Shown piece by piece: positions 2,684 through 52,098 of a DNA stretch of 61,127 nucleotides; position 1 is the first letter of the stretch; every line of letters starts with the position of its first letter. The stretch comes from Clostridia bacterium (GTDB taxonomy: Bacteria; Bacillota; Clostridia; Oscillospirales; Acutalibacteraceae), in NCBI GenBank assembly GCA_017507805.1, contig JAFWAC010000036.1:1-61127 (forward strand), in the 5' to 3' direction. The notes under the pieces are model-generated. The model had not been told where the DNA came from. It did no database searches and was given only the letters and a program-made list of their open reading frames with translations. The translations under genes were made by a program, and so were the position numbers.

Positions 2684-3844
2684 ATGGATATTAAAGTTTT
2701 CACTAAAATATTAAAGGATAAGCATTTTACAAATTATCAGAAAATGCAATATAAATATGAAGAAGATTTTGATTCTTTTTTGCAGACATTAGAAGATTTG
2801 TATTATAAAACTTTGCCGCTTTCTGATTTTGATGGTAAGGATATTGTTTTTATTGAAAATCACGCGGCGGTAAATCAAAGTGCGGTTAAACTTTTGTTGC
2901 AATCACAAGACCAGCACTATGGGTTTAAAGCAGCAGAAGATGAGATTGTTGCAACTTCTGCTATTGAAAGTATAGATTTCAGTCGTGACAGTGTTCGCAA
3001 AATTCTTAAAGGTATGGCACCGAAAGACGAGCAGGAAAACAGAATAATGGGACTTAAATCAGGACTTGAATTTATTGCTGATACCACCAATAAAATTACC
3101 GAGGAAAATTTATATAAACTTTATATGATGACAGTCGGTAATTTCCTGACAGGTGACGATAGATTAAAGAAAGGCAAACTTTATAGACACGATACTGTTT
3201 ATGTTGTAAGTGACCGTGTTGAACATTCGGGACTTGACTATAAAAAGGTGCCGAAATTTATGAAGTCGCTTATTGCATTTGCAAATGAGGAAGACGCTAT
3301 CAACGATTTAATCAAGGCTGCTATTATTCATTTTTATATCGCATTTGTGCATCCTTATTTTGATGGTAATGGCAGAATTGCAAGACTTGTGCATCTGTGG
3401 TTTCTGATTCAAAAAGGTTACCAATCTGCGCTGTTTATTCCGTTCTCAAGCCAAATTGAAAAAAGCAGAAAAGCGTACTATGATGCCTATACAACCATTG
3501 AGGAAAACAAAAAAATCAGTGGTAAGATAGATGTTACACCGTTTGTTATGTATTTCATAAATAATGTTTACAACAAAATTAACGAAGCTTCCACTACTAT
3601 CGAAACTTTAAGTGTTTATGATGACGCGGTAAAGGCAGGCAAAATAACAGAAAAAGAAACTAAACTCTGGAAGTTTGTGCTTTCGTTCTACGGTACTGAA
3701 GAGTTTTCTACAAAGCGACTTGAAAAAGATTTTGGCGATGCTGCTTATGCAACAATCAGAGGTTTTGTCCTAAAATTTGAAGATTTAGGGCTTCTTTCTT
3801 CTGTAAAATACGGTCCGAGAGTCAAATATAAAGTTATTAAATAA
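2684..3844 (+). CDS. Fic/DOC family protein (probable AMP transferase)
   Basis: Fic enzymes transfer AMP, or another nucleotide monophosphate, to hydroxyl side chains of target proteins. The 386-residue protein carries the catalytic loop HPYFDGNGR at 223-231, matching HPFx(D/E)GNGRxxR. An N-terminal segment TSAIES (91-96) resembles the autoinhibitory helix (S/T)xxxE(G/N), with Ser at the last position. The C-terminal ~70 residues look like a winged-helix domain. The ATG at 2684 is chosen because GAGG lies 7 bp upstream; a TTG lies two codons earlier. It ends 13 bp before the serine recombinase start, so the two are probably one transcript. The target is unknown; it could be a toxin-like or stress regulator carried on a mobile element. 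Confidence 0.85.
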   Translation: MDIKVFTKILKDKHFTNYQKMQYKYEEDFDSFLQTLEDLYYKTLPLSDFDGKDIVFIENHAAVNQSAVKLLLQSQDQHYGFKAAEDEIVATSAIESIDFSRDSVRKILKGMAPKDEQENRIMGLKSGLEFIADTTNKITEENLYKLYMMTVGNFLTGDDRLKKGKLYRHDTVYVVSDRVEHSGLDYKKVPKFMKSLIAFANEEDAINDLIKAAIIHFYIAFVHPYFDGNGRIARLVHLWFLIQKGYQSALFIPFSSQIEKSRKAYYDAYTTIEENKKISGKIDVTPFVMYFINNVYNKINEASTTIETLSVYDDAVKAGKITEKETKLWKFVLSFYGTEEFSTKRLEKDFGDAAYATIRGFVLKFEDLGLLSSVKYGPRVKYKVIK

Positions 3845-3857
3845 GGCGGTGATATTT

Positions 3858-5396
3858 TTGACAGGTGTAATTTATGCGAGATATTCATCAGATAATCAGC
3901 GTGAAGAGTCTATTGAAGGCCAGTTGCGTGAATGTAAGAACTTTGCTGAAAAGAACGGTATACAAATAGTTGGCACATATATTGACCGTGCACTGTCTGC
4001 AAAAACAGATAACCGTCCTGATTTTCAAAAAATGATTAAGGATAGTGCAAAACAGCAATTTGAAACTATCATTGTGTGGAAGCTTGACCGTTTTGCACGT
4101 AACCGTTATGATTCAGCTCATTATAAAAGTATTTTAAAAAGAAACAATGTCCGTGTTCTTTCTGCTACTGAAGCAATTTCTCAAGGTGCAGAAGGCATCA
4201 TTCTTGAATCTGTGTTAGAAGGTATGGCGGAATACTATTCAGCGGAGCTTGCGGAAAAGGTTATCCGTGGGCAAACCGAAAACGCATTGAGTTGCCGTTT
4301 TAACGGAGGTACTGTACCTATAGGATATAACATTGTTAATCAGCATTTTGTTGTTAACAATGAAACAGCACCGATGGTAGTTACGGCATACGAAATGTAT
4401 GAGGACGGTAATACCATGCAGGAAATTGCCGATTACTTAAATGTTCACGGATTGCGAAACACAAGAGGAACAAAACTGACCATCAATACTGTTTCTAACC
4501 TGCTCACCAATAGAAGATATATTGGCGAATATGTTTATCGTGACATTGTTGTGCCTGACGGTATTCCTGCTATCGTTCCTAAAGACTTGTTTGACCGTGT
4601 GCAAGAGAGAATTGTCATAAACAAAAAATCTCCGGCTCGATATAGGGCGGATGAGCAGTATATTTTGTCTACTAAACTGTACTGCGGTAGATGTATGACT
4701 TTTATGCTTGGCGAAAGCGGAACATCAAGAAATAAAGATACCTACCGTTACTATAAATGTCTATCTGCAAAACGCAAAAGCGGTTGCGATAAAAAGGCGG
4801 TTAAAAAGCATTGGATTGAAGATATTGTAATTAACCAAATCTTAAAATGCATTTGGGATGATAATCTTATTGAAGATGTAACTGATCTTATAATGGATAT
4901 GCAGGTTCAGGAAAACAATGCATTGACATTACTTAAAAAACGTCTCAATGAAGTTCAGAAAGGTATTTCTAATATACTTTCTGCAATTGAACAAGGAATT
5001 TTTACCTCCTCTACTAAAGAGCGCCTTGTAGAGTTGGAAAACCAAAAGAACGAAATTGAAATCGAAATCGCACAGGAAAGTATTGCCCGCCCAATGCTTG
5101 ACCGCGACCAAATAAAATTTTGGTTTCATAGATTCAGAAAAATGGATGTAACGCTGTTTGAAAACCGCAGAAGGCTTGTTGATAGCTTTGTGAATTCAAT
5201 AATTTTACACGATGATAGAATCGAATTTTATTTTAATTTCAAAAAGGGTGCAAAAACACTCTCTTTAGCAGATTTAGAAAAAAGTTCGGAAACGCTTGAC
5301 ACACTCCCACCAGCAAAAAGAGCCTTGTCGAAAGACAAGGCTCTTTTTGCAACTAAGTGTGCCTTGCGGCACGATAAGCGCACCTTCGGTGCGTGA
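3858..5396 (+). CDS. Large serine recombinase (resolvase/invertase family)
   Basis: The protein has an N-terminal resolvase domain (about 2-150) with nucleophile Ser10 in ARYSSDNQ and the conserved DRxxR-like block WKLDRFARNRYD. A recombinase domain and a zinc-ribbon (CGRCM...SGCDKKA) follow, then a coiled-coil region around 355-410. At 512 residues the size fits integrases of mobilizable elements. The TTG at 3858 is chosen because AAGGCGGTG lies just upstream; GTG at 3849 overlaps that site. The last ~30 residues are encoded by a terminator stem and the first members of a hairpin array, so the original stop codon seems to have been lost. The matching element ends were not identified. Confidence 0.85.
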   Translation: MTGVIYARYSSDNQREESIEGQLRECKNFAEKNGIQIVGTYIDRALSAKTDNRPDFQKMIKDSAKQQFETIIVWKLDRFARNRYDSAHYKSILKRNNVRVLSATEAISQGAEGIILESVLEGMAEYYSAELAEKVIRGQTENALSCRFNGGTVPIGYNIVNQHFVVNNETAPMVVTAYEMYEDGNTMQEIADYLNVHGLRNTRGTKLTINTVSNLLTNRRYIGEYVYRDIVVPDGIPAIVPKDLFDRVQERIVINKKSPARYRADEQYILSTKLYCGRCMTFMLGESGTSRNKDTYRYYKCLSAKRKSGCDKKAVKKHWIEDIVINQILKCIWDDNLIEDVTDLIMDMQVQENNALTLLKKRLNEVQKGISNILSAIEQGIFTSSTKERLVELENQKNEIEIEIAQESIARPMLDRDQIKFWFHRFRKMDVTLFENRRRLVDSFVNSIILHDDRIEFYFNFKKGAKTLSLADLEKSSETLDTLPPAKRALSKDKALFATKCALRHDKRTFGA

Positions 5397-46124: not shown

Positions 46125-46772
46125 TTACCCCTTCTTTTGCGCCTGAAGCTGATAGCACTCGTCACACATTTTTGCCACCTGCGGCGAATGGCTTACAAGA
46201 ATTACGCATTTCCCGTTATCTGCCAGACGGCGGAAAATCTCCATAATTTCTGCCTGAGTTTCGGTGTCGAGATTGCCTGTCGGCTCATCGGCAAGAATAA
46301 TATCGGGGTTGTAGGAAAGCGCGCGCGCAATGGCAACGCGCTGTTGCTGACCGCCCGAAAGCATAAGCACGCGGCGGTTTGCCTCGTCACTGTCAAGCCC
46401 TACCTCGGCTAAAAGCTCTGCCGCTTTTTTTGCCCTTTGCTTATCCTTAACACCTGCAATATCCATTGAAAGCATAACATTTTCCAAGGCGGTAAATTTG
46501 GTTATCAAGTTAAAGCTTTGAAAAATAACACCCATATATTTGCTTCTGAATTTATATTTATCTATTTTGGCAATATCCTCGTCCTTATAAAATATACTGC
46601 CGCTTCCCGGAGCCGCCAAGCCTGACAAAATAGACAGCAGGGTGGTTTTTCCTGCTCCCGATTTTCCGGTTATGCAGTACATCTTACCAGCTTCAAAATC
46701 ATAGGTTATATCATTCAATATGATTTTTTTGCCGTAAGAAAAGCTTATATTCTTAAGTGAAAGTAAAGACAT
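46125..46772 (-). CDS. ABC transporter ATP-binding protein (MacB/LolD-like)
   Basis: The 215-residue ATPase has Walker A GKSGAGKTTLL, signature LSGGQQQRVAIARAL, Walker B DIILADEPTGNLD and the H-loop ILVSHSPQ. It pairs with the MacB-type permease 11 bp upstream. AGGAGGGG precedes the ATG. Such pairs export peptides or lipoproteins, or transmit envelope signals. Confidence 0.92.
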   Translation of the reverse strand: MSLLSLKNISFSYGKKIILNDITYDFEAGKMYCITGKSGAGKTTLLSILSGLAAPGSGSIFYKDEDIAKIDKYKFRSKYMGVIFQSFNLITKFTALENVMLSMDIAGVKDKQRAKKAAELLAEVGLDSDEANRRVLMLSGGQQQRVAIARALSYNPDIILADEPTGNLDTETQAEIMEIFRRLADNGKCVILVSHSPQVAKMCDECYQLQAQKKG

Positions 46773-46783
46773 AAATTCCCCTC

Positions 46784-48400
46784 CTAATCTCTGTTAGAAA
46801 GTATGCGCAACGGCTCATACCTCATAATAAACAGCATTGAAGCCATACCGGCAATCAGTGTAAGCAAAACCGCTATTCCAAGCATCTGAAGCAAAACTGT
46901 AACATCGGTTGCGGAATTAATTTCTGTGATATATTCTGTGGGGTTGCCGATAAAATCCTTCATAAATCCGCCCTGTGGCATACCTCCCATATTTCCCGGC
47001 ATACCTGTTTCACCTTTATCTCCTCTGCCGAAGCCCTGCTCCATATTCTGGAATTGCTGTTCCTTGGCAGTGGTCTGATTTTCAAGCAGGGTATTTGCCA
47101 CAGGCACAGAAGCCACCGCGCCTACCGCGGCACCTATGATTACCGAAACAAGCGTAACCATAAAAATTTCCGCCATAAACTGCATTGCCACCTTGGTTTT
47201 TTTCATACCCATTGCAGTTAAAACACCAATTTCATACTTTCTTTCACGGACACTGAAAATATTTAAAACCACAAGAATTACCGCGCCGATAATTAAAATA
47301 ACGATTAGAAAATATCCTGCAGTTTTGCTGAGTGTGGTAAGGGGTGTAAGGCTGTTTTCAAAGGCTGTAATATCGGTTGAGGAAACGGTGTAGCTTTCAT
47401 CAAGCCCCATTTCCCTTACATCGCTTTCAAACTGCTCAAAGCCCTCCACATCGGCAAAGGAATATGTAGCCGAAAGTGTACCTGTTAAGGCAGTTTCAAA
47501 TTCTCTGCCGGTGTCCTCGTCTGTCTTTGTTTCGGAAACACCTTCAGAAGCCTCCACCATCGCCTGCAATGCGTTATAGCTCATATAAATTTTGTTTGCA
47601 GGGTCGTTTGAGGTCATACCCATCATAGAAAAGCTGTTTTCATTAGCAGTAGTATCAGTGTAAAATCCCGTAACGGTGAGGATGTAGCTTTCGGTCTCGC
47701 TGTTGGGATTGATAACCGTTATGCTGTCGCCCACCGAAAGATTATTATATGTAGCCAATTCCTCGGAAATTATACATTCATAATCCTTCGTGCCTTCGGC
47801 GAAAACCTCGCCTGTTGTAACCGAAGCTGTACCGTTTATAAAATCAGTCATAGCGGTCTCACTGCTATATCCCACAACGGTGAAATCGCTCTGCGCTCCC
47901 ATAACGCGGTCAAAACCGCCCATACCGCCGGGCATCATACCGCCAAAGCCGCCTTTGTTATTCTCGGTATCATCCTCGGTTTGAGTATCCTCTGAGGAAA
48001 CCGGCAGCAGATTATCGTCACCGTCCAAGGAAACCGAAAGCGAGTAATAAAAATCCTTAACCGTTTGCGCCTTGGCATAGGTCTCGTATTCCTCAAGGGT
48101 AAGCGCCGATGATGAGCCCATCATTTCGGCAAACTGTGAACGGTCAAACTCAGGCGGTGAGCTCATATCTCCACCCTGTGTCGGCGGTGTCATATTACTC
48201 ATAGCAGATTGCCTGTCAAAAGAAATGGTTGCCGTTACAGACATTCCGTCAAGCGTTTCCTTTCTGGCATTCTCTGCTGCCTGACGGATAGAAAGCCCTA
48301 TACACGCAGACACAGCAATAACCAAAACAATTATTCCGATAAGAATATTCCTGCCCTTGCTTCTGCTTATACAGCGCAAGGCATTTTTGAAAATATACAT
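46784..48400 (-). CDS. ABC transporter permease (MacB/FtsX-like)
   Basis: The 538-residue protein has one transmembrane segment near the N-terminus (NILIGIIVLVIAVSACIGLSI), a large outer domain of about 330 residues, and three more segments with FtsX features (ILIIGAVILVVLNIFSVRERKYEIGVLTAMGMKK). The outer domain holds an acidic Gly/Met-rich stretch (DDTENNKGGFGGMMPGGMGGFD), and a second Met/Gly/Gln-rich loop lies near the last segments (PGNMGGMPQGGF). The ATG at 48400 has AAGGAGACGG upstream; a longer frame to 48532 is not used. Confidence 0.9.
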   Translation of the reverse strand: MYIFKNALRCISRSKGRNILIGIIVLVIAVSACIGLSIRQAAENARKETLDGMSVTATISFDRQSAMSNMTPPTQGGDMSSPPEFDRSQFAEMMGSSSALTLEEYETYAKAQTVKDFYYSLSVSLDGDDNLLPVSSEDTQTEDDTENNKGGFGGMMPGGMGGFDRVMGAQSDFTVVGYSSETAMTDFINGTASVTTGEVFAEGTKDYECIISEELATYNNLSVGDSITVINPNSETESYILTVTGFYTDTTANENSFSMMGMTSNDPANKIYMSYNALQAMVEASEGVSETKTDEDTGREFETALTGTLSATYSFADVEGFEQFESDVREMGLDESYTVSSTDITAFENSLTPLTTLSKTAGYFLIVILIIGAVILVVLNIFSVRERKYEIGVLTAMGMKKTKVAMQFMAEIFMVTLVSVIIGAAVGAVASVPVANTLLENQTTAKEQQFQNMEQGFGRGDKGETGMPGNMGGMPQGGFMKDFIGNPTEYITEINSATDVTVLLQMLGIAVLLTLIAGMASMLFIMRYEPLRILSNRD

Positions 48401-48532
48401 ATTTACCGTCTCCTTTTCGTCAAACAGTTTATAACCTGATTTTTGTATTGGGGTGATATAAAAATTAACGATTTGTAAACGATTGTGTAATTTGTTTAAA
48501 TTGCCGAAAATGCTTTTAAGCGCAAAAAACAC

Positions 48533-48561
48533 TTTACAACTTTATCATAATAAAGTATAAT
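48533..48561 (+). promoter_or_regulatory. Promoter of the amino-acid ABC operon
   Basis: TTTACA (48533-48538), 17 bp, TATAAT (48556-48561), 34 bp before the start codon of the binding protein. Confidence 0.8.
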
Positions 48562-48595: not shown

Positions 48596-49384
48596 ATGAA
48601 AAAACTTTTAGCACTTATTTTATGTCTCATTATGGTATTTGCCGTTGCCGGCTGCGGTAACAGCGAAAAAATCCTTGTGGCAGAAAAGGAATCCGCAGGC
48701 GAAGCAGTTGCTACAACTGAGGATGATTTCAAGGATTATACCTACACTGCAGTTGACACACAGGCTAAGGCTCTTATGGAGGTAAGCGCCGGCACTGCTG
48801 ACGCTGCTGTTGTTGACTATGTAATGTCCATTGGCTCCATTGGCGAGGGTACCGATTACACCGACCTCGTTGTTGAGGGTGACGGTTATTCCGAGGAGGA
48901 GTACGGTATCGCATTCAGAAAGGGCTCCGACCTTACTGCTAAAATCAACGAGATTATAAGAGAGCTTAAATCCGAGGGCAAGCTCACCGAAATTGCAAAA
49001 ACCTATAAGCTTGAAAACATCCTTTTGGGCACCGAGGAAACCGAAGCCTTTGTTCAGGCTGAAACCGATTCGGATTACAAATATGTAATGGATAAGGGCG
49101 AGCTTGTTATTGGTATTACCTATTTTGCTCCTATGAATTATGAGAATGAGGACGGCGAGCTCGTTGGCTTTGAGACCGAGTTTGCAAAGGCCGTTTGCGA
49201 GAAGCTTGGTGTTACCGCTAAATTCCAGGAGATAAGCTGGTCTGCAAAGGAGACCGAGCTTGCAGCTAAGAATATTGACTGCATCTGGAACGGTATGACC
49301 ATCACCGAGGAAAGAGAAGCAAATATGAGCATTTCCATTCCTTATATGCAGAATAAGCAGGTTAAGATAGTAAAGGCTGACTAA
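48596..49384 (+). CDS. Amino-acid ABC binding lipoprotein with circularly permuted halves
   Basis: The 262-residue lipoprotein has signal peptide 1-19 and Cys20 in VAGC. The halves of the SBP_bac_3 fold appear in swapped order. Residues 26-144 are the usual second half: VAEKESAGEAVA, ALMEVSAGTADAAVVDYVMS, YGIAFRKGSDLTAKINEII and KLTEIAKTYKLENILL. A 16-residue linker (145-160) follows. Residues 161-262 are the usual first half: GELVIGITYFAPMNY, GFETEFAKAVCEKLGV, NIDCIWNGMTITEER and YMQNKQVKIV. Both ligand residues expected of the family (Arg in TITEER, Asp74) are present. It heads an intact permease-ATPase operon, so a working polar amino-acid importer is likely. Confidence 0.85.
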   Translation: MKKLLALILCLIMVFAVAGCGNSEKILVAEKESAGEAVATTEDDFKDYTYTAVDTQAKALMEVSAGTADAAVVDYVMSIGSIGEGTDYTDLVVEGDGYSEEEYGIAFRKGSDLTAKINEIIRELKSEGKLTEIAKTYKLENILLGTEETEAFVQAETDSDYKYVMDKGELVIGITYFAPMNYENEDGELVGFETEFAKAVCEKLGVTAKFQEISWSAKETELAAKNIDCIWNGMTITEEREANMSISIPYMQNKQVKIVKAD

Positions 49385-49416: not shown

Positions 49417-50058
49417 ATGTCTTTTCAGCAGGTTAGCTTAAGCCTTGCTGCGGGATTTTTAGAAAATTGCAGGTTGTTTTTTGAAACCCTGCTTTTTTCT
49501 ATCCCGTTAGGATTGCTAATAAGCTTTTGTACTATGTCAAAATTCAAGCCTTTGAGCTTTGTTTTCAAAATTATTGTTTGGTGCATAAGGGGAACTCCGC
49601 TTATGCTCCAGCTTTTTGTTGTTTTCTATGTTCCGGGGCTTGTTTTCGGCATACCTATGCGCAACAGGATGTTGGCGGCGCTTATCGCCTTCGTAATTAA
49701 CTATGCCTGCTATTTTTCCGAGATTTTCCGCGGAGGAATAGAAAGTATCTCAAAGGGACAGTATGAAGCGGGGCAGGTTTTAGGTCTTACCAAAAGACAG
49801 ATTTTTACCAAAATCATTCTTTTGCAGGTAACCAAAAGGATAGTTCCTCCAATGAGTAACGAAATAATTACCCTTGTGAAGGATACCTCCCTTGCCAGAG
49901 TAATCGCGGTGGGTGAAATCCTGCTTGCCGCAGAACGCTTTGCAGGAAAAGGCGTTATCTGGCCGCTTTTCTTTACAGGCGTATATTTCCTCGCATTTTG
50001 CGGTCTGCTTACCCTACTTTTCGGTTATATCGAAAAGAAGCTAAGCTATTTTAACTAA
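49417..50058 (+). CDS. Amino-acid ABC transporter permease
   Basis: The 213-residue HisM/GlnP-type permease has CTMSKFKPLSFVFKIIVWCIRGTPLMLQLFVVFY and the EAA-like loop GQYEAGQVLGLTKRQIFTKIILLQ. Several transmembrane segments are visible. It begins 32 bp after the permuted binding protein. AAGAGG lies 11 bp before the ATG, a weak site. Confidence 0.92.
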   Translation: MSFQQVSLSLAAGFLENCRLFFETLLFSIPLGLLISFCTMSKFKPLSFVFKIIVWCIRGTPLMLQLFVVFYVPGLVFGIPMRNRMLAALIAFVINYACYFSEIFRGGIESISKGQYEAGQVLGLTKRQIFTKIILLQVTKRIVPPMSNEIITLVKDTSLARVIAVGEILLAAERFAGKGVIWPLFFTGVYFLAFCGLLTLLFGYIEKKLSYFN

Positions 50059-50070
50059 GGGGGCAGAAAA

Positions 50071-50820
50071 GTGTCTGTATTAGAGGTAAAAAACATTAAA
50101 AAAAGCTTTGGCAAGACCGAGGTTTTAAAGGGCATCAGCTTTTCCCTTGAAAAGGGCGAGGTGCTGTCCATTATCGGCTCCTCAGGCAGCGGTAAAACCA
50201 CATTGCTCAGATGCCTTAACTTTCTGGAATTTGCGGACGGCGGAACAATCTCTGTGGACGGTGAAACAATTTTTGACGCATCCTCTGTCAAAAAACTTAG
50301 TGACAGCCAAATCAGAGACAATAGGCTCAGGTTCGGTCTGGTTTTTCAATCCTTTAACCTTTTTCCGCAATATAATGTGCTGAAAAATATCACTCTGGCG
50401 CCAAGTCTTTTGAAACGCGGTACATCCGAACAAATCGAGCAGGAAGCGCTTGCCCTTATTGAACGGGTAGGGCTTCTTGAAAAAAAGGAAAATTACCCCT
50501 GCCAGCTTTCAGGCGGTCAGCAGCAACGCGTTGCCATTGCAAGAGCATTAGCATTGAAGCCTGATATTCTCTGCTTTGACGAGCCGACCTCCGCGCTCGA
50601 CCCTGAGCTTACAGGTGAGGTTTTGAAGGTTATCCGCGACCTTAAAAGCGGTGACAGTACCATGATAGTTGTAACCCACGAAATGGAGTTTGCCCGAAGC
50701 GTTTCGGACAAGGTAATTTTCATGGCAGACGGCGTTATAGAGGAAATGGGCACACCCGAGCAGATTTTCGGCAATCCCAAATCACCAAAAACAAAAAGCT
50801 TTTTAAATCAGATAGTTTAA
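50071..50820 (+). CDS. Amino-acid ABC transporter ATP-binding protein
   Basis: The 249-residue GlnQ-type ATPase has Walker A GSSGSGKTTLLRCLN, signature LSGGQQQRVAIARALAL, Walker B ILCFDEPTSALDPEL and H-loop VVTHEMEFA. The GTG at 50071 has AAGGGGGC upstream. It completes the three-gene importer and is followed by a terminator. Confidence 0.94.
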   Translation: MSVLEVKNIKKSFGKTEVLKGISFSLEKGEVLSIIGSSGSGKTTLLRCLNFLEFADGGTISVDGETIFDASSVKKLSDSQIRDNRLRFGLVFQSFNLFPQYNVLKNITLAPSLLKRGTSEQIEQEALALIERVGLLEKKENYPCQLSGGQQQRVAIARALALKPDILCFDEPTSALDPELTGEVLKVIRDLKSGDSTMIVVTHEMEFARSVSDKVIFMADGVIEEMGTPEQIFGNPKSPKTKSFLNQIV

Positions 50821-51069: not shown

Positions 51070-52098
51070 TTATATCAACACAAGTGTAATTAAAAGCATA
51101 ACAGCAATAAAACCGATTTTTATCATACCCGTGAAATTCGGCAAAGCCTCCATAAGCTTGTCTGCCGCTTCGGGGTTGGCATTTGACAGCGCGTCACCCA
51201 AAATATTGTCAACCTTGTCGCCCGACTGTTCGGGTGAGGTGTTCGGTGTGAGCTCCTCACCGGGGTACTGCTCCTTAAAAATTTCCTCTGCAAATTTGTC
51301 GGTCACAGGTATCTGAGTGCCCGGCTTGTTTTCAATTTTTCCTTCCTCACTCTGTTCAAGATTGAAGGTTATGCGGTCAACCGTTTTAGAGCATCTTATG
51401 CAGTGGCGGGACATCTCGCCCGGCGCTTCCTTTGTAGCTTCCTTATCAACCGTCCATTGGTCGGAATATTCGTGACCGATAGGATCGGTATCGCGAAGCT
51501 TGACATTTCCGCATTTTTGACACACTGCCTGCTCGGCTCCCTTTTCCTCACAGGAGGGCTCTGCCGCAACGGTCCATTCCCCATATTTCTTATGTGAGCA
51601 GTTATTCCCGTTGAAAGCAACATCCACACCACCGGTTGTAACCTCGGGCATTATTTTATCCAAATCCCAATTACAGAAATCACCCTCGCTGTATTCCAGA
51701 CCTATTTCGTGAAGCTCAGCCTCAGCATCCTCCTTAATCTTAAAGCGCAGATAAAGCAAAACACCGTCCTTATTAATATCCGAGGACTCACAGTTTACAA
51801 AGCGGATAATATTTTTATCGGGGTGAGCCACAACGGTGTAATCCTCAATAACATTTCCAAGGTAAAACTTTTCATAGGTCAGCGCTTTGGAATTGTATGT
51901 TATGGAAACGGTTATCGCCATTATTCCGGGGTTGTCTTTAATCCTCACAGCAACTAAAACAGAATTTCCCGTGACACCCGAAACGGTATCAATTTTAATG
52001 TGTCCGCCCCTAATTACCTCAGCAGAGGCGTTAATTCCAAAAACACCGCCAAATATGAGGCATATACACAAAATAAGAACAGCAAGCCTTTTAAGCAT
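51070..52098 (-). CDS. Membrane-anchored cohesin-domain surface protein
   Basis: The 342-residue protein has a signal peptide (1 to about 26). A cohesin-like beta-sandwich (about 33-160) follows: KIDTVSGVTGNSVLVAVRIKDNPGIMAITVSITYNSKAL, then IRFVNCESSDINKDGVLLYLRFKI and an end at VDVAFNG. Two Cys-rich repeats typical of Ruminococcus surface proteins follow (CSHKKYGEWTV...CQKCGNV and HEYSDQWTV...CIRCSKT). An acidic linker and a C-terminal transmembrane anchor complete it. Cohesins bind dockerin-bearing enzymes, but free cohesin-like domains also serve other roles. No dockerin is seen in the window. Confidence 0.78.
   Translation of the reverse strand: MLKRLAVLILCICLIFGGVFGINASAEVIRGGHIKIDTVSGVTGNSVLVAVRIKDNPGIMAITVSITYNSKALTYEKFYLGNVIEDYTVVAHPDKNIIRFVNCESSDINKDGVLLYLRFKIKEDAEAELHEIGLEYSEGDFCNWDLDKIMPEVTTGGVDVAFNGNNCSHKKYGEWTVAAEPSCEEKGAEQAVCQKCGNVKLRDTDPIGHEYSDQWTVDKEATKEAPGEMSRHCIRCSKTVDRITFNLEQSEEGKIENKPGTQIPVTDKFAEEIFKEQYPGEELTPNTSPEQSGDKVDNILGDALSNANPEAADKLMEALPNFTGMIKIGFIAVMLLITLVLI

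What the first reader, a model, noticed from the sequence alone, without database searches (positions are those of the whole stretch)
48596..49384. Natural circular permutation of an amino-acid ABC binding protein
After a normal lipoprotein signal peptide, the second half of the SBP_bac_3 fold (residues 26-144, from VAEKESAGE to KTYKLENILL) comes first. A 16-residue acidic linker and then the first half (161-262, from GELVIGITYFAPMNY to NKQVKIVKAD) follow. The cut coincides with the first inter-lobe crossing, and the original ends are joined by the linker, as expected for a working permutant. No second copy of either half lies in the 195 bp upstream or the 32 bp downstream. Promoter, ribosome binding sites, permease and ATPase are intact. 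I know of no such permuted family in standard annotation, but I could not search. The general fold, ligand residues and half order are established family knowledge; function is inference.
Basis: partly seen in the sequence, partly recalled or inferred. Interest (0 to 1): 0.78.

Follow-up and report, generated by a model that had tools for sequence, protein, structure and literature searches.

The report
Recurrently permuted amino-acid binding proteins
This gut-bacterial nutrient-capture protein really has its two halves in swapped order, and relatives in other bacteria of the same phylum appear to have made the same kind of swap several separate times, at three different places in the chain.

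Summary
ORF 48596-49384 is a lipoprotein of family SBP_bac_3 whose segments run b-c-linker-a instead of a-b-c (a = first half of lobe I, b = lobe II, c = second crossing plus rest of lobe I). Rotation turns two out-of-order profile matches (156 and 194 bits) into one of 342 bits. It is not an assembly error: 11 other loci carry the same order, under purifying selection, next to the same permease and ATPase. The six nearest normal-order relatives are 65-68% identical after rotation. The larger result lies outside the window: three cut points occur in this family (b-c-a, c-a-b, and a cut inside lobe II). On trees of 159-162 rotated proteins, order switches 14-19 times, at least 8-9 on starred branches; on segment a alone at least 6. 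A single origin of b-c-a (p-AU 4e-7) and of c-a-b (7e-4) is rejected. Natural permutation of binding proteins is known (TpMglB-2; betaine-binding proteins); ten searches showed none for this family. AlphaFold models were too poor to show the fold. Ligand and any advantage are inference.

The parts
48533..48561 (+). promoter-like site TTTACA-17-TATAAT
   Evidence: 11 of 12 consensus matches; pattern match only
48596..49384 (+). circularly permuted SBP_bac_3 lipoprotein, 262 aa, order signal peptide - b - c - linker - a
48596..48655 (+). lipoprotein signal peptide with lipobox VAGC (Cys 20)
   Evidence: read from the translation
48668..48844 (+). segment b: lobe II (about residues 25-83), normally in the middle of the protein
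   Evidence: segment profile, 90 bits
48845..49024 (+). segment c: second crossing and last part of lobe I (about residues 84-143), normally the C-terminus
   Evidence: segment profile, 87 bits
49028..49075 (+). 16-residue acidic linker joining the original C-terminus to the original N-terminus (residues 145-160)
   Evidence: by profile boundaries the c-to-a linker is 14-22 residues in 25 b-c-a proteins
49076..49381 (+). segment a: first half of lobe I up to the first crossing (residues 161-262), normally the N-terminus
   Evidence: segment profile, 172 bits; PF00497 positions 2-92
49417..50058 (+). HisM/GlnP-type ABC permease
   Evidence: BPD_transp_1 2-183/184; TIGR01726 above cut-off
50071..50820 (+). 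GlnQ-type ABC ATPase
   Evidence: ABC_tran 1-137/137

Best explanation
The gene encodes a working, membrane-anchored binding protein of a polar amino-acid ABC importer (SBP, permease, ATPase in one operon). Its fold is the ordinary two-lobe SBP_bac_3 fold read from a new starting point. The chain begins in lobe II, crosses once into lobe I, completes lobe I through a short linker that joins the old C- and N-termini, and ends at the broken first crossing. Each lobe thus becomes one unbroken stretch, and one covalent strand instead of two spans the hinge (inferred from the order of segments). The likely route is tandem duplication and in-frame fusion (a-b-c-a-b-c), then loss of the first a and the last b-c: fused doubles of that kind exist, and the linker reads like an old C-terminal tail plus an old mature N-terminal lead. 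The same family has switched order repeatedly, at three cut points. Shown: order, conservation, purifying selection, operon, repeated changes of order on trees. Inferred: folding, ligand (an alpha-amino acid; cystine or histidine type is a guess), transport, and the duplication route.
For: Rotation restores one collinear 342-bit match, best cut at the linker. Same order in 11 other loci at 68-89% identity to the window protein. The 12 loci form one branch in the quick trees (SH-aLRT 100 and 98), and the 10 of them given to the careful tree do so at 100/99. In the 12 loci pN/pS is 0.20 (a 0.15, b 0.18, c 0.25, linker 0.35). The permease follows on the same strand in 42 of 42 b-c-a rows, duplicates included. 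D74, P179, G191, D228 and Y250 are identical in 73 of 73 permuted and 85 of 85 normal rows; R240 in 12 of 12 window-clade rows (roles of R240 and D74 in ligand binding recalled from LAO/HisJ). L080 (b-c-a) and L102 (normal), 80% identical after rotation, are sisters in the a-half and in the b+c-half tree. Repeated switching, permuted against normal: 19 changes (at least 9 forced by starred branches) with 162 rows, 14 (at least 8) without three long rows, 16 (at least 6) on segment a alone. AU tests reject one clade of 15 b-c-a rows (p 3.9e-7) and of 41 c-a-b rows (p 6.8e-4). Fused double SBPs in L106 and L168.
Against: The window clade cannot be told apart from the one other b-c-a row L107 as a shared origin (p-AU 0.31) and only weakly from L077-79 (p 0.035). 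Counts of changes cannot tell gain from reversal. The 159-162-row trees are quick ones with long branches, which the tree program warns about, and segment a alone has few columns (100). No half-way form such as a-b-c-a was among the orders found. The genome is incomplete (87.6%), so a second normal-order copy could be missing. The 7 named b-c-a records are all metagenome-assembled genomes.
Confidence: 0.86

Rival explanations
1. Assembly or binning artefact that joins two halves in the wrong order.
For: The genome is a 36-contig, 87.6% complete assembly, and the 7 named b-c-a relatives are metagenome-assembled genomes.
Against: The same order recurs in 11 other loci of the clade from different hosts and assemblies, on contigs up to 141 kb, and in other lineages.
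Confidence: 0.01
2. A chimera of half-genes from two different binding proteins rather than a permutation of one gene.
For: Half-trees have few columns (99 and 134) and many open forks, so fine mixing of close paralogues would not be seen. For L107 the nearest rows differ between the halves (b-c-a row L012 in the a tree, normal row L020 in the b+c tree), without supported placement.
Against: Both halves of the window protein are close to the same group of normal-order proteins (64-74% for a, 53-62% for b+c against L014-L020 and L022), and L080 has the same 99%-supported sister, L102, in both half-trees.
Confidence: 0.05
3. One or few old permutations followed by repeated return to the normal order, or recombination between permuted and normal genes, instead of many independent permutations.
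For: Parsimony counts have no direction, and the window clade joined with L107 is not rejected.
Against: Cut points differ: the 12-15 residue loop is lost in the window clade, kept at the N-terminus in L077-L079 and at the C-terminus in L080 and partly in L107. A return would need the same multi-step change backwards (inference). No solved chain shown (60 rows each of 89, 105 and 331 matches) matches in one stretch across a permuted order, except the fused double 6h30. Transfer of whole genes would move protein and order together and would not mix orders on a protein tree.
Confidence: 0.12
4. A decaying or non-functional duplicate.
For: Unusual order; no structure.
Against: pN/pS 0.20 with many synonymous sites near saturation (20 of 66 pairs saturated), conserved ligand-site residues, intact operon, and no closer SBP_bac_3 copy found in the genome: the only other one over the cut-off is L001, a distant normal-order paralogue.
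Confidence: 0.02

Closest known systems
Canonical SBP_bac_3 amino-acid binding proteins (GlnH, HisJ, LAO, cystine SBP type; PF00497)
   Same: Homologous over every segment; PF00497 over its cut-off; ligand-site Asp and Arg kept; operon with HisM/GlnP-type permease and GlnQ-type ATPase
   Different: Segment order b-c-a instead of a-b-c; old termini joined by a linker; new termini at the first crossing; 12-15 residue loop lost
TpMglB-2 (Tp0684), glucose-binding lipoprotein of Treponema pallidum, 'Type Ic' (PMC4990184, abstract and passages seen)
   Same: A natural, solved circular permutant of an ABC-importer binding lipoprotein that still binds ligand and changes shape; relatives in Gram-positive gut bacteria
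   Different: Type I (sugar) fold, other family, other cut; the passages describe one subclass with two main clades, not repeated recent events
Glycine betaine-binding proteins related by circular permutation among themselves and to molybdate-binding proteins and CysB (PMC2395249, section 11 and passages read)
   Same: Two-lobe binding proteins related by permutation
   Different: Pairs under 24% identical, found by structure comparison; here permuted and normal forms are up to 80% identical and sit on one tree
Tandem substrate-binding domains of a glutamine importer (PDB 6h30; 'GlnPQ' recalled)
   Same: Solved chain of 460 residues that my queries match across a c-a junction (P0001 101-253 to chain 185-322), the arrangement needed as an intermediate
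   Different: Two complete copies in normal order (order recalled and inferred, not tested copy by copy)

Membership tests
SBP_bac_3 (PF00497) | profile score over the curated cut-off | tested here: met
   107.4 bits against 26.4
SBP_bac_3 (PF00497) | segments in the order lobe I first half - lobe II - lobe I second half | tested here: not met
   order is b-c-a; homologous to the family, but not a collinear member
SBP_bac_3 (PF00497) | conserved alpha-amino-acid contacts (Arg after the TxxER motif, Asp in lobe II; roles recalled) | tested here: met
   R240 and D74 in 12 of 12 window-clade rows; over all rows D74 158 of 158, R240 51 of 73 permuted and 74 of 85 normal
SBP_bac_3 (PF00497) | two-lobe type II fold with a hinge | tested here: inconclusive
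   AF2 mean pLDDT 50.8 and 52.0
Polar amino-acid ABC importer operon | permease and ATPase next to the SBP | tested here: met
Polar amino-acid ABC importer operon | assignment to a named substrate (NCBIfam equivalogs) | tested here: not met
   substrate-specific models shown are all below cut-off (25 of 194 shown for the ATPase); cystine models rank first for SBP and ATPase, second for the permease
Natural circular permutation | one rotation restores collinearity with relatives | tested here: met
   342.3 bits in one domain after rotation
Natural circular permutation | both halves descend from the same ancestral gene | tested here: inconclusive
   consistent half identities; half-trees for the window clade poorly resolved, clear only for L080
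Natural circular permutation | same three-dimensional fold kept | tested here: inconclusive
Type Ic binding proteins (TpMglB-2) | type I sugar-binding fold in permuted order | tested here: not met
   sequence belongs to PF00497, an amino-acid family of type II (type assignment recalled)

The most novel reading that the evidence does not exclude
SBP_bac_3 binding proteins of this bacterial class (NCBI-named relatives are Clostridia) form a natural family in which chain order has switched many times, through all three cyclic orders of its lobe segments plus a cut inside lobe II. The switching is adaptive: it puts the lipid anchor at the hinge and leaves one covalent strand between the lobes, tuning opening, ligand release or docking to the permease.
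Probability: 0.3. Interest if true: 0.9.

Novelty: new variant of a known kind. Interest (0 to 1): 0.75.

Why it matters
The natural permutations of binding proteins that I found in print are distant relationships seen by structure comparison. Here permuted and normal orders coexist at up to 80% identity, in the same operon setting, with several origins and three cut points. That makes how a permutation arises, how many steps it takes, and what it does to a hinge-bending receptor directly testable with natural pairs. It also matters for annotation: profile searches report such proteins as two partial hits, and standard names hide the change. The repeated origins suggest that this fold tolerates, or gains from, moving its ends to the lobe boundary, which is useful for biosensor design (inference).

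Tried and rejected

Artefact, chimera and pseudogene readings were tested and set low (see rivals). A single origin of 15 b-c-a rows (of 25) and of 41 c-a-b rows (of 43) was tested and rejected. A shared origin of the window clade with L107 was tested and not rejected (p 0.31), and L077-L079 as one clade was not rejected (p 0.45).

Wider census: the relatives, order, class and phylum samples list only the best rows, so permuted proteins are lower bounds. The ratio of permuted to normal rows in my set is not a prevalence: loci were chosen partly because they matched permuted queries.

Rows dropped before the 162-row tree: duplicates of the same locus; ORFs open at a contig end (L029, L099, L163); L059 (partial); the truncated copy of the G756 normal gene in L085. 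Three long rows (L179, L039 4750-5667, L167) were dropped for the 159-row trees. The careful 39-row tree holds 35 of the 40 rows of the window's branch plus 4 outgroup rows, chosen by me. L152, whose b segment was not detected, was filed as b-c-a by its kin L153-L155.

Paper searches: (all 10 allowed; listings seen), plus term look-ups in PMC12667903 and PMC11757225 (none of the terms found) and in PMC2395249. 'None described for this family' rests on these only; most subscription papers are not held.

Full report
What is there. ORF 48596-49384 (+) encodes 262 residues with a lipoprotein signal peptide. It is followed 32 bp later by a HisM/GlnP-type permease and then by a GlnQ-type ATPase, both nearly full length in Pfam. 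Against solved SBP_bac_3 chains the protein matches in two stretches in the wrong order: 157-259 to residues 25-128 and 26-135 to 144-252 of 6det. I name three segments: a, the first half of lobe I; b, lobe II; c, the second crossing and the rest of lobe I (lobe names are family knowledge). Normal relatives run a-b-c; the window protein runs signal-b-c-linker-a.

Rotation test. A profile of 15 normal-order relatives gives the native chain two out-of-order domains of 155.6 and 194.0 bits (plus a 9.8-bit signal-peptide match), and the rotated chain one domain of 342.3 bits over profile positions 35-270. The summed whole-sequence scores are nearly equal (346.3 and 343.6), as expected when only the order differs. 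Over 200 random cuts the best single-domain score peaks at 349-351 bits for cuts at 145-158 and falls to 166 bits far from it.

Not an artefact. A search of 198 genomes, the window's own included and 69 others of the same genus, found full-length b-c-a proteins at 68-89% identity in 9 other genomes (8 of the same genus, 1 of another genus of the family). A separate collection gave 13 loci, 7 of them b-c-a; two of the 7 (L039, L040) were additional. The 7 records are metagenome-assembled genomes titled Clostridia, Clostridiales or Oscillospiraceae; five titles name cattle, roe deer, goat or water buffalo gut. The 12 loci show pN/pS 0.20 over 237 codon columns. They form one branch in quick trees (SH-aLRT 100 and 98); ten of them were given to the careful tree (support 100/99). 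All 42 b-c-a rows, duplicates counted, have the permease next on the same strand; so do 39 of 48 c-a-b and 75 of 92 a-b-c rows, some of which lack flanking sequence. In the window's genome (87.6% complete) the only other SBP_bac_3 gene over the cut-off is a distant normal-order one, L001.

Anatomy of the junctions. By profile boundaries the c-to-a linker is 14-22 residues in 25 b-c-a proteins, 12-30 in 43 c-a-b proteins and 17-18 in 5 proteins cut inside lobe II (medians 18, 18 and 17). By eye it is the old C-terminal tail followed by the old mature N-terminal lead; L080 against L102 shows this best. The 11 normal relatives printed have a 12-15 residue loop between a and b. The window clade has lost it, L077-L079 keep it at the new N-terminus, and L080 and partly L107 keep it at the new C-terminus.

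Ligand site. D74, P179, G191, D228 and Y250 are identical in 73 of 73 permuted and 85 of 85 normal rows; R240 is kept in 12 of 12 window-clade rows, 51 of 73 permuted and 74 of 85 normal rows. That the Arg and Asp bind the amino-acid carboxylate and amino group is recalled from LAO and HisJ. The substrate-specific NCBIfam models shown fall below cut-off; cystine models come first for the SBP and ATPase and second for the permease. A polar alpha-amino acid is the best guess.

The larger finding. Segment profiles run over ORFs of 190 loci gave, among ORFs with an a-segment, 92 a-b-c, 42 b-c-a, 48 c-a-b, 4 a-b-c-a-b-c, 2 a-b, 1 b-c-a-b and 1 c-a, duplicates included. Without duplicates and partial ORFs the tree set has 85 normal rows, 25 b-c-a, 43 c-a-b, 5 cut inside lobe II, and 4 units of two fused doubles (162 rows). 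On the rotated proteins, permuted against normal order (fused doubles counted as normal) changes 19 times, at least 9 forced by starred branches; without three long rows 14, at least 8; on segment a alone, which is never cut, 16, at least 6. By type, b-c-a changes 8 times (at least 5), c-a-b 11 (at least 7), the lobe II cut once; without the long rows 6 (5), 9 (6) and 1. AU tests reject one clade of the 15 b-c-a rows in a 39-row careful tree (p 3.9e-7), of the window clade with L080 (2.4e-7) and, weakly, with L077-L079 (0.035), but not with L107 (0.31); one clade of the 41 c-a-b rows among 159 is rejected (6.8e-4). The clearest pair is L080 (b-c-a) and L102 (normal): sisters at 100/100, 80% identical over 245 columns after rotation, and sisters in both half-trees. 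Outside the class (383 of the 398 genomes of the phylum sample), permuted proteins were confirmed in six genomes of two family codes (f118, f157), again a lower bound.

How it likely arises and works. Fused doubles exist (L106, with a permease in the same 787-residue ORF; L168, 528 residues), and L168 groups with a 12-row c-a-b clade at SH-aLRT 92, below the starred level. Loss of one a in front and of b-c behind yields b-c-a. In both permuted orders each lobe is unbroken and one covalent strand spans the hinge; in the window protein the lipid anchor enters at lobe II beside the hinge. These are inferences from segment order. Whether this changes opening or docking is unknown.

Known or new. 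Natural permutation of ABC binding proteins is known: TpMglB-2 (PMC4990184, passages read) and betaine-binding proteins (PMC2395249, section 11 and passages read). Ten library searches showed none for SBP_bac_3. I file it as a new variant of a known kind; the repeated, recent switching is the surprising part.

Noticed in passing
L039:4750-5667 (+): Downstream of the b-c-a operon of this goat metagenome-assembled genome lies a second, distant SBP that is also permuted, in the c-a-b order.
   Followed up: partly
L108:1855-2712; L157-L160: Five proteins are cut inside lobe II: the start of lobe II sits at the C-terminus and the rest of it at the N-terminus. They form one branch (SH-aLRT 99).
   Followed up: partly
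L106:901-3264 (-): One 787-residue ORF holds two closely similar SBP units fused to a permease.
   Followed up: partly
L168:1088-2674 (-): A 528-residue ORF with two fused SBP units in normal order; groups next to a c-a-b clade (SH-aLRT 92).
   Followed up: partly
L186:1598-4176 (+): A normal-order SBP gene (1598-2428) lies upstream of a b-c-a SBP gene (3262-4176).
   Followed up: partly
PDB 5jkq: Plasmodium PfVFT1 matches the contiguous c-linker-a part of a weak model with a higher Z than the bacterial SBPs listed; it may itself have a permuted order.
   Followed up: no
window 51070-52098 (-): Cohesin-domain protein (PF00963, 49.4 bits) with a signal-like N-terminus and a hydrophobic C-terminus.
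   Followed up: no
window 46125-48532 (-): Divergently transcribed ABC ATPase and FtsX-type permease pair next to the operon.
   Followed up: no
PF00497.25: The current Pfam SBP_bac_3 model is only 132 positions; in the window protein, matches to it cover positions 2-94 (segment a) and 97-129, so lobe II appears to be mostly left out.
   Followed up: no
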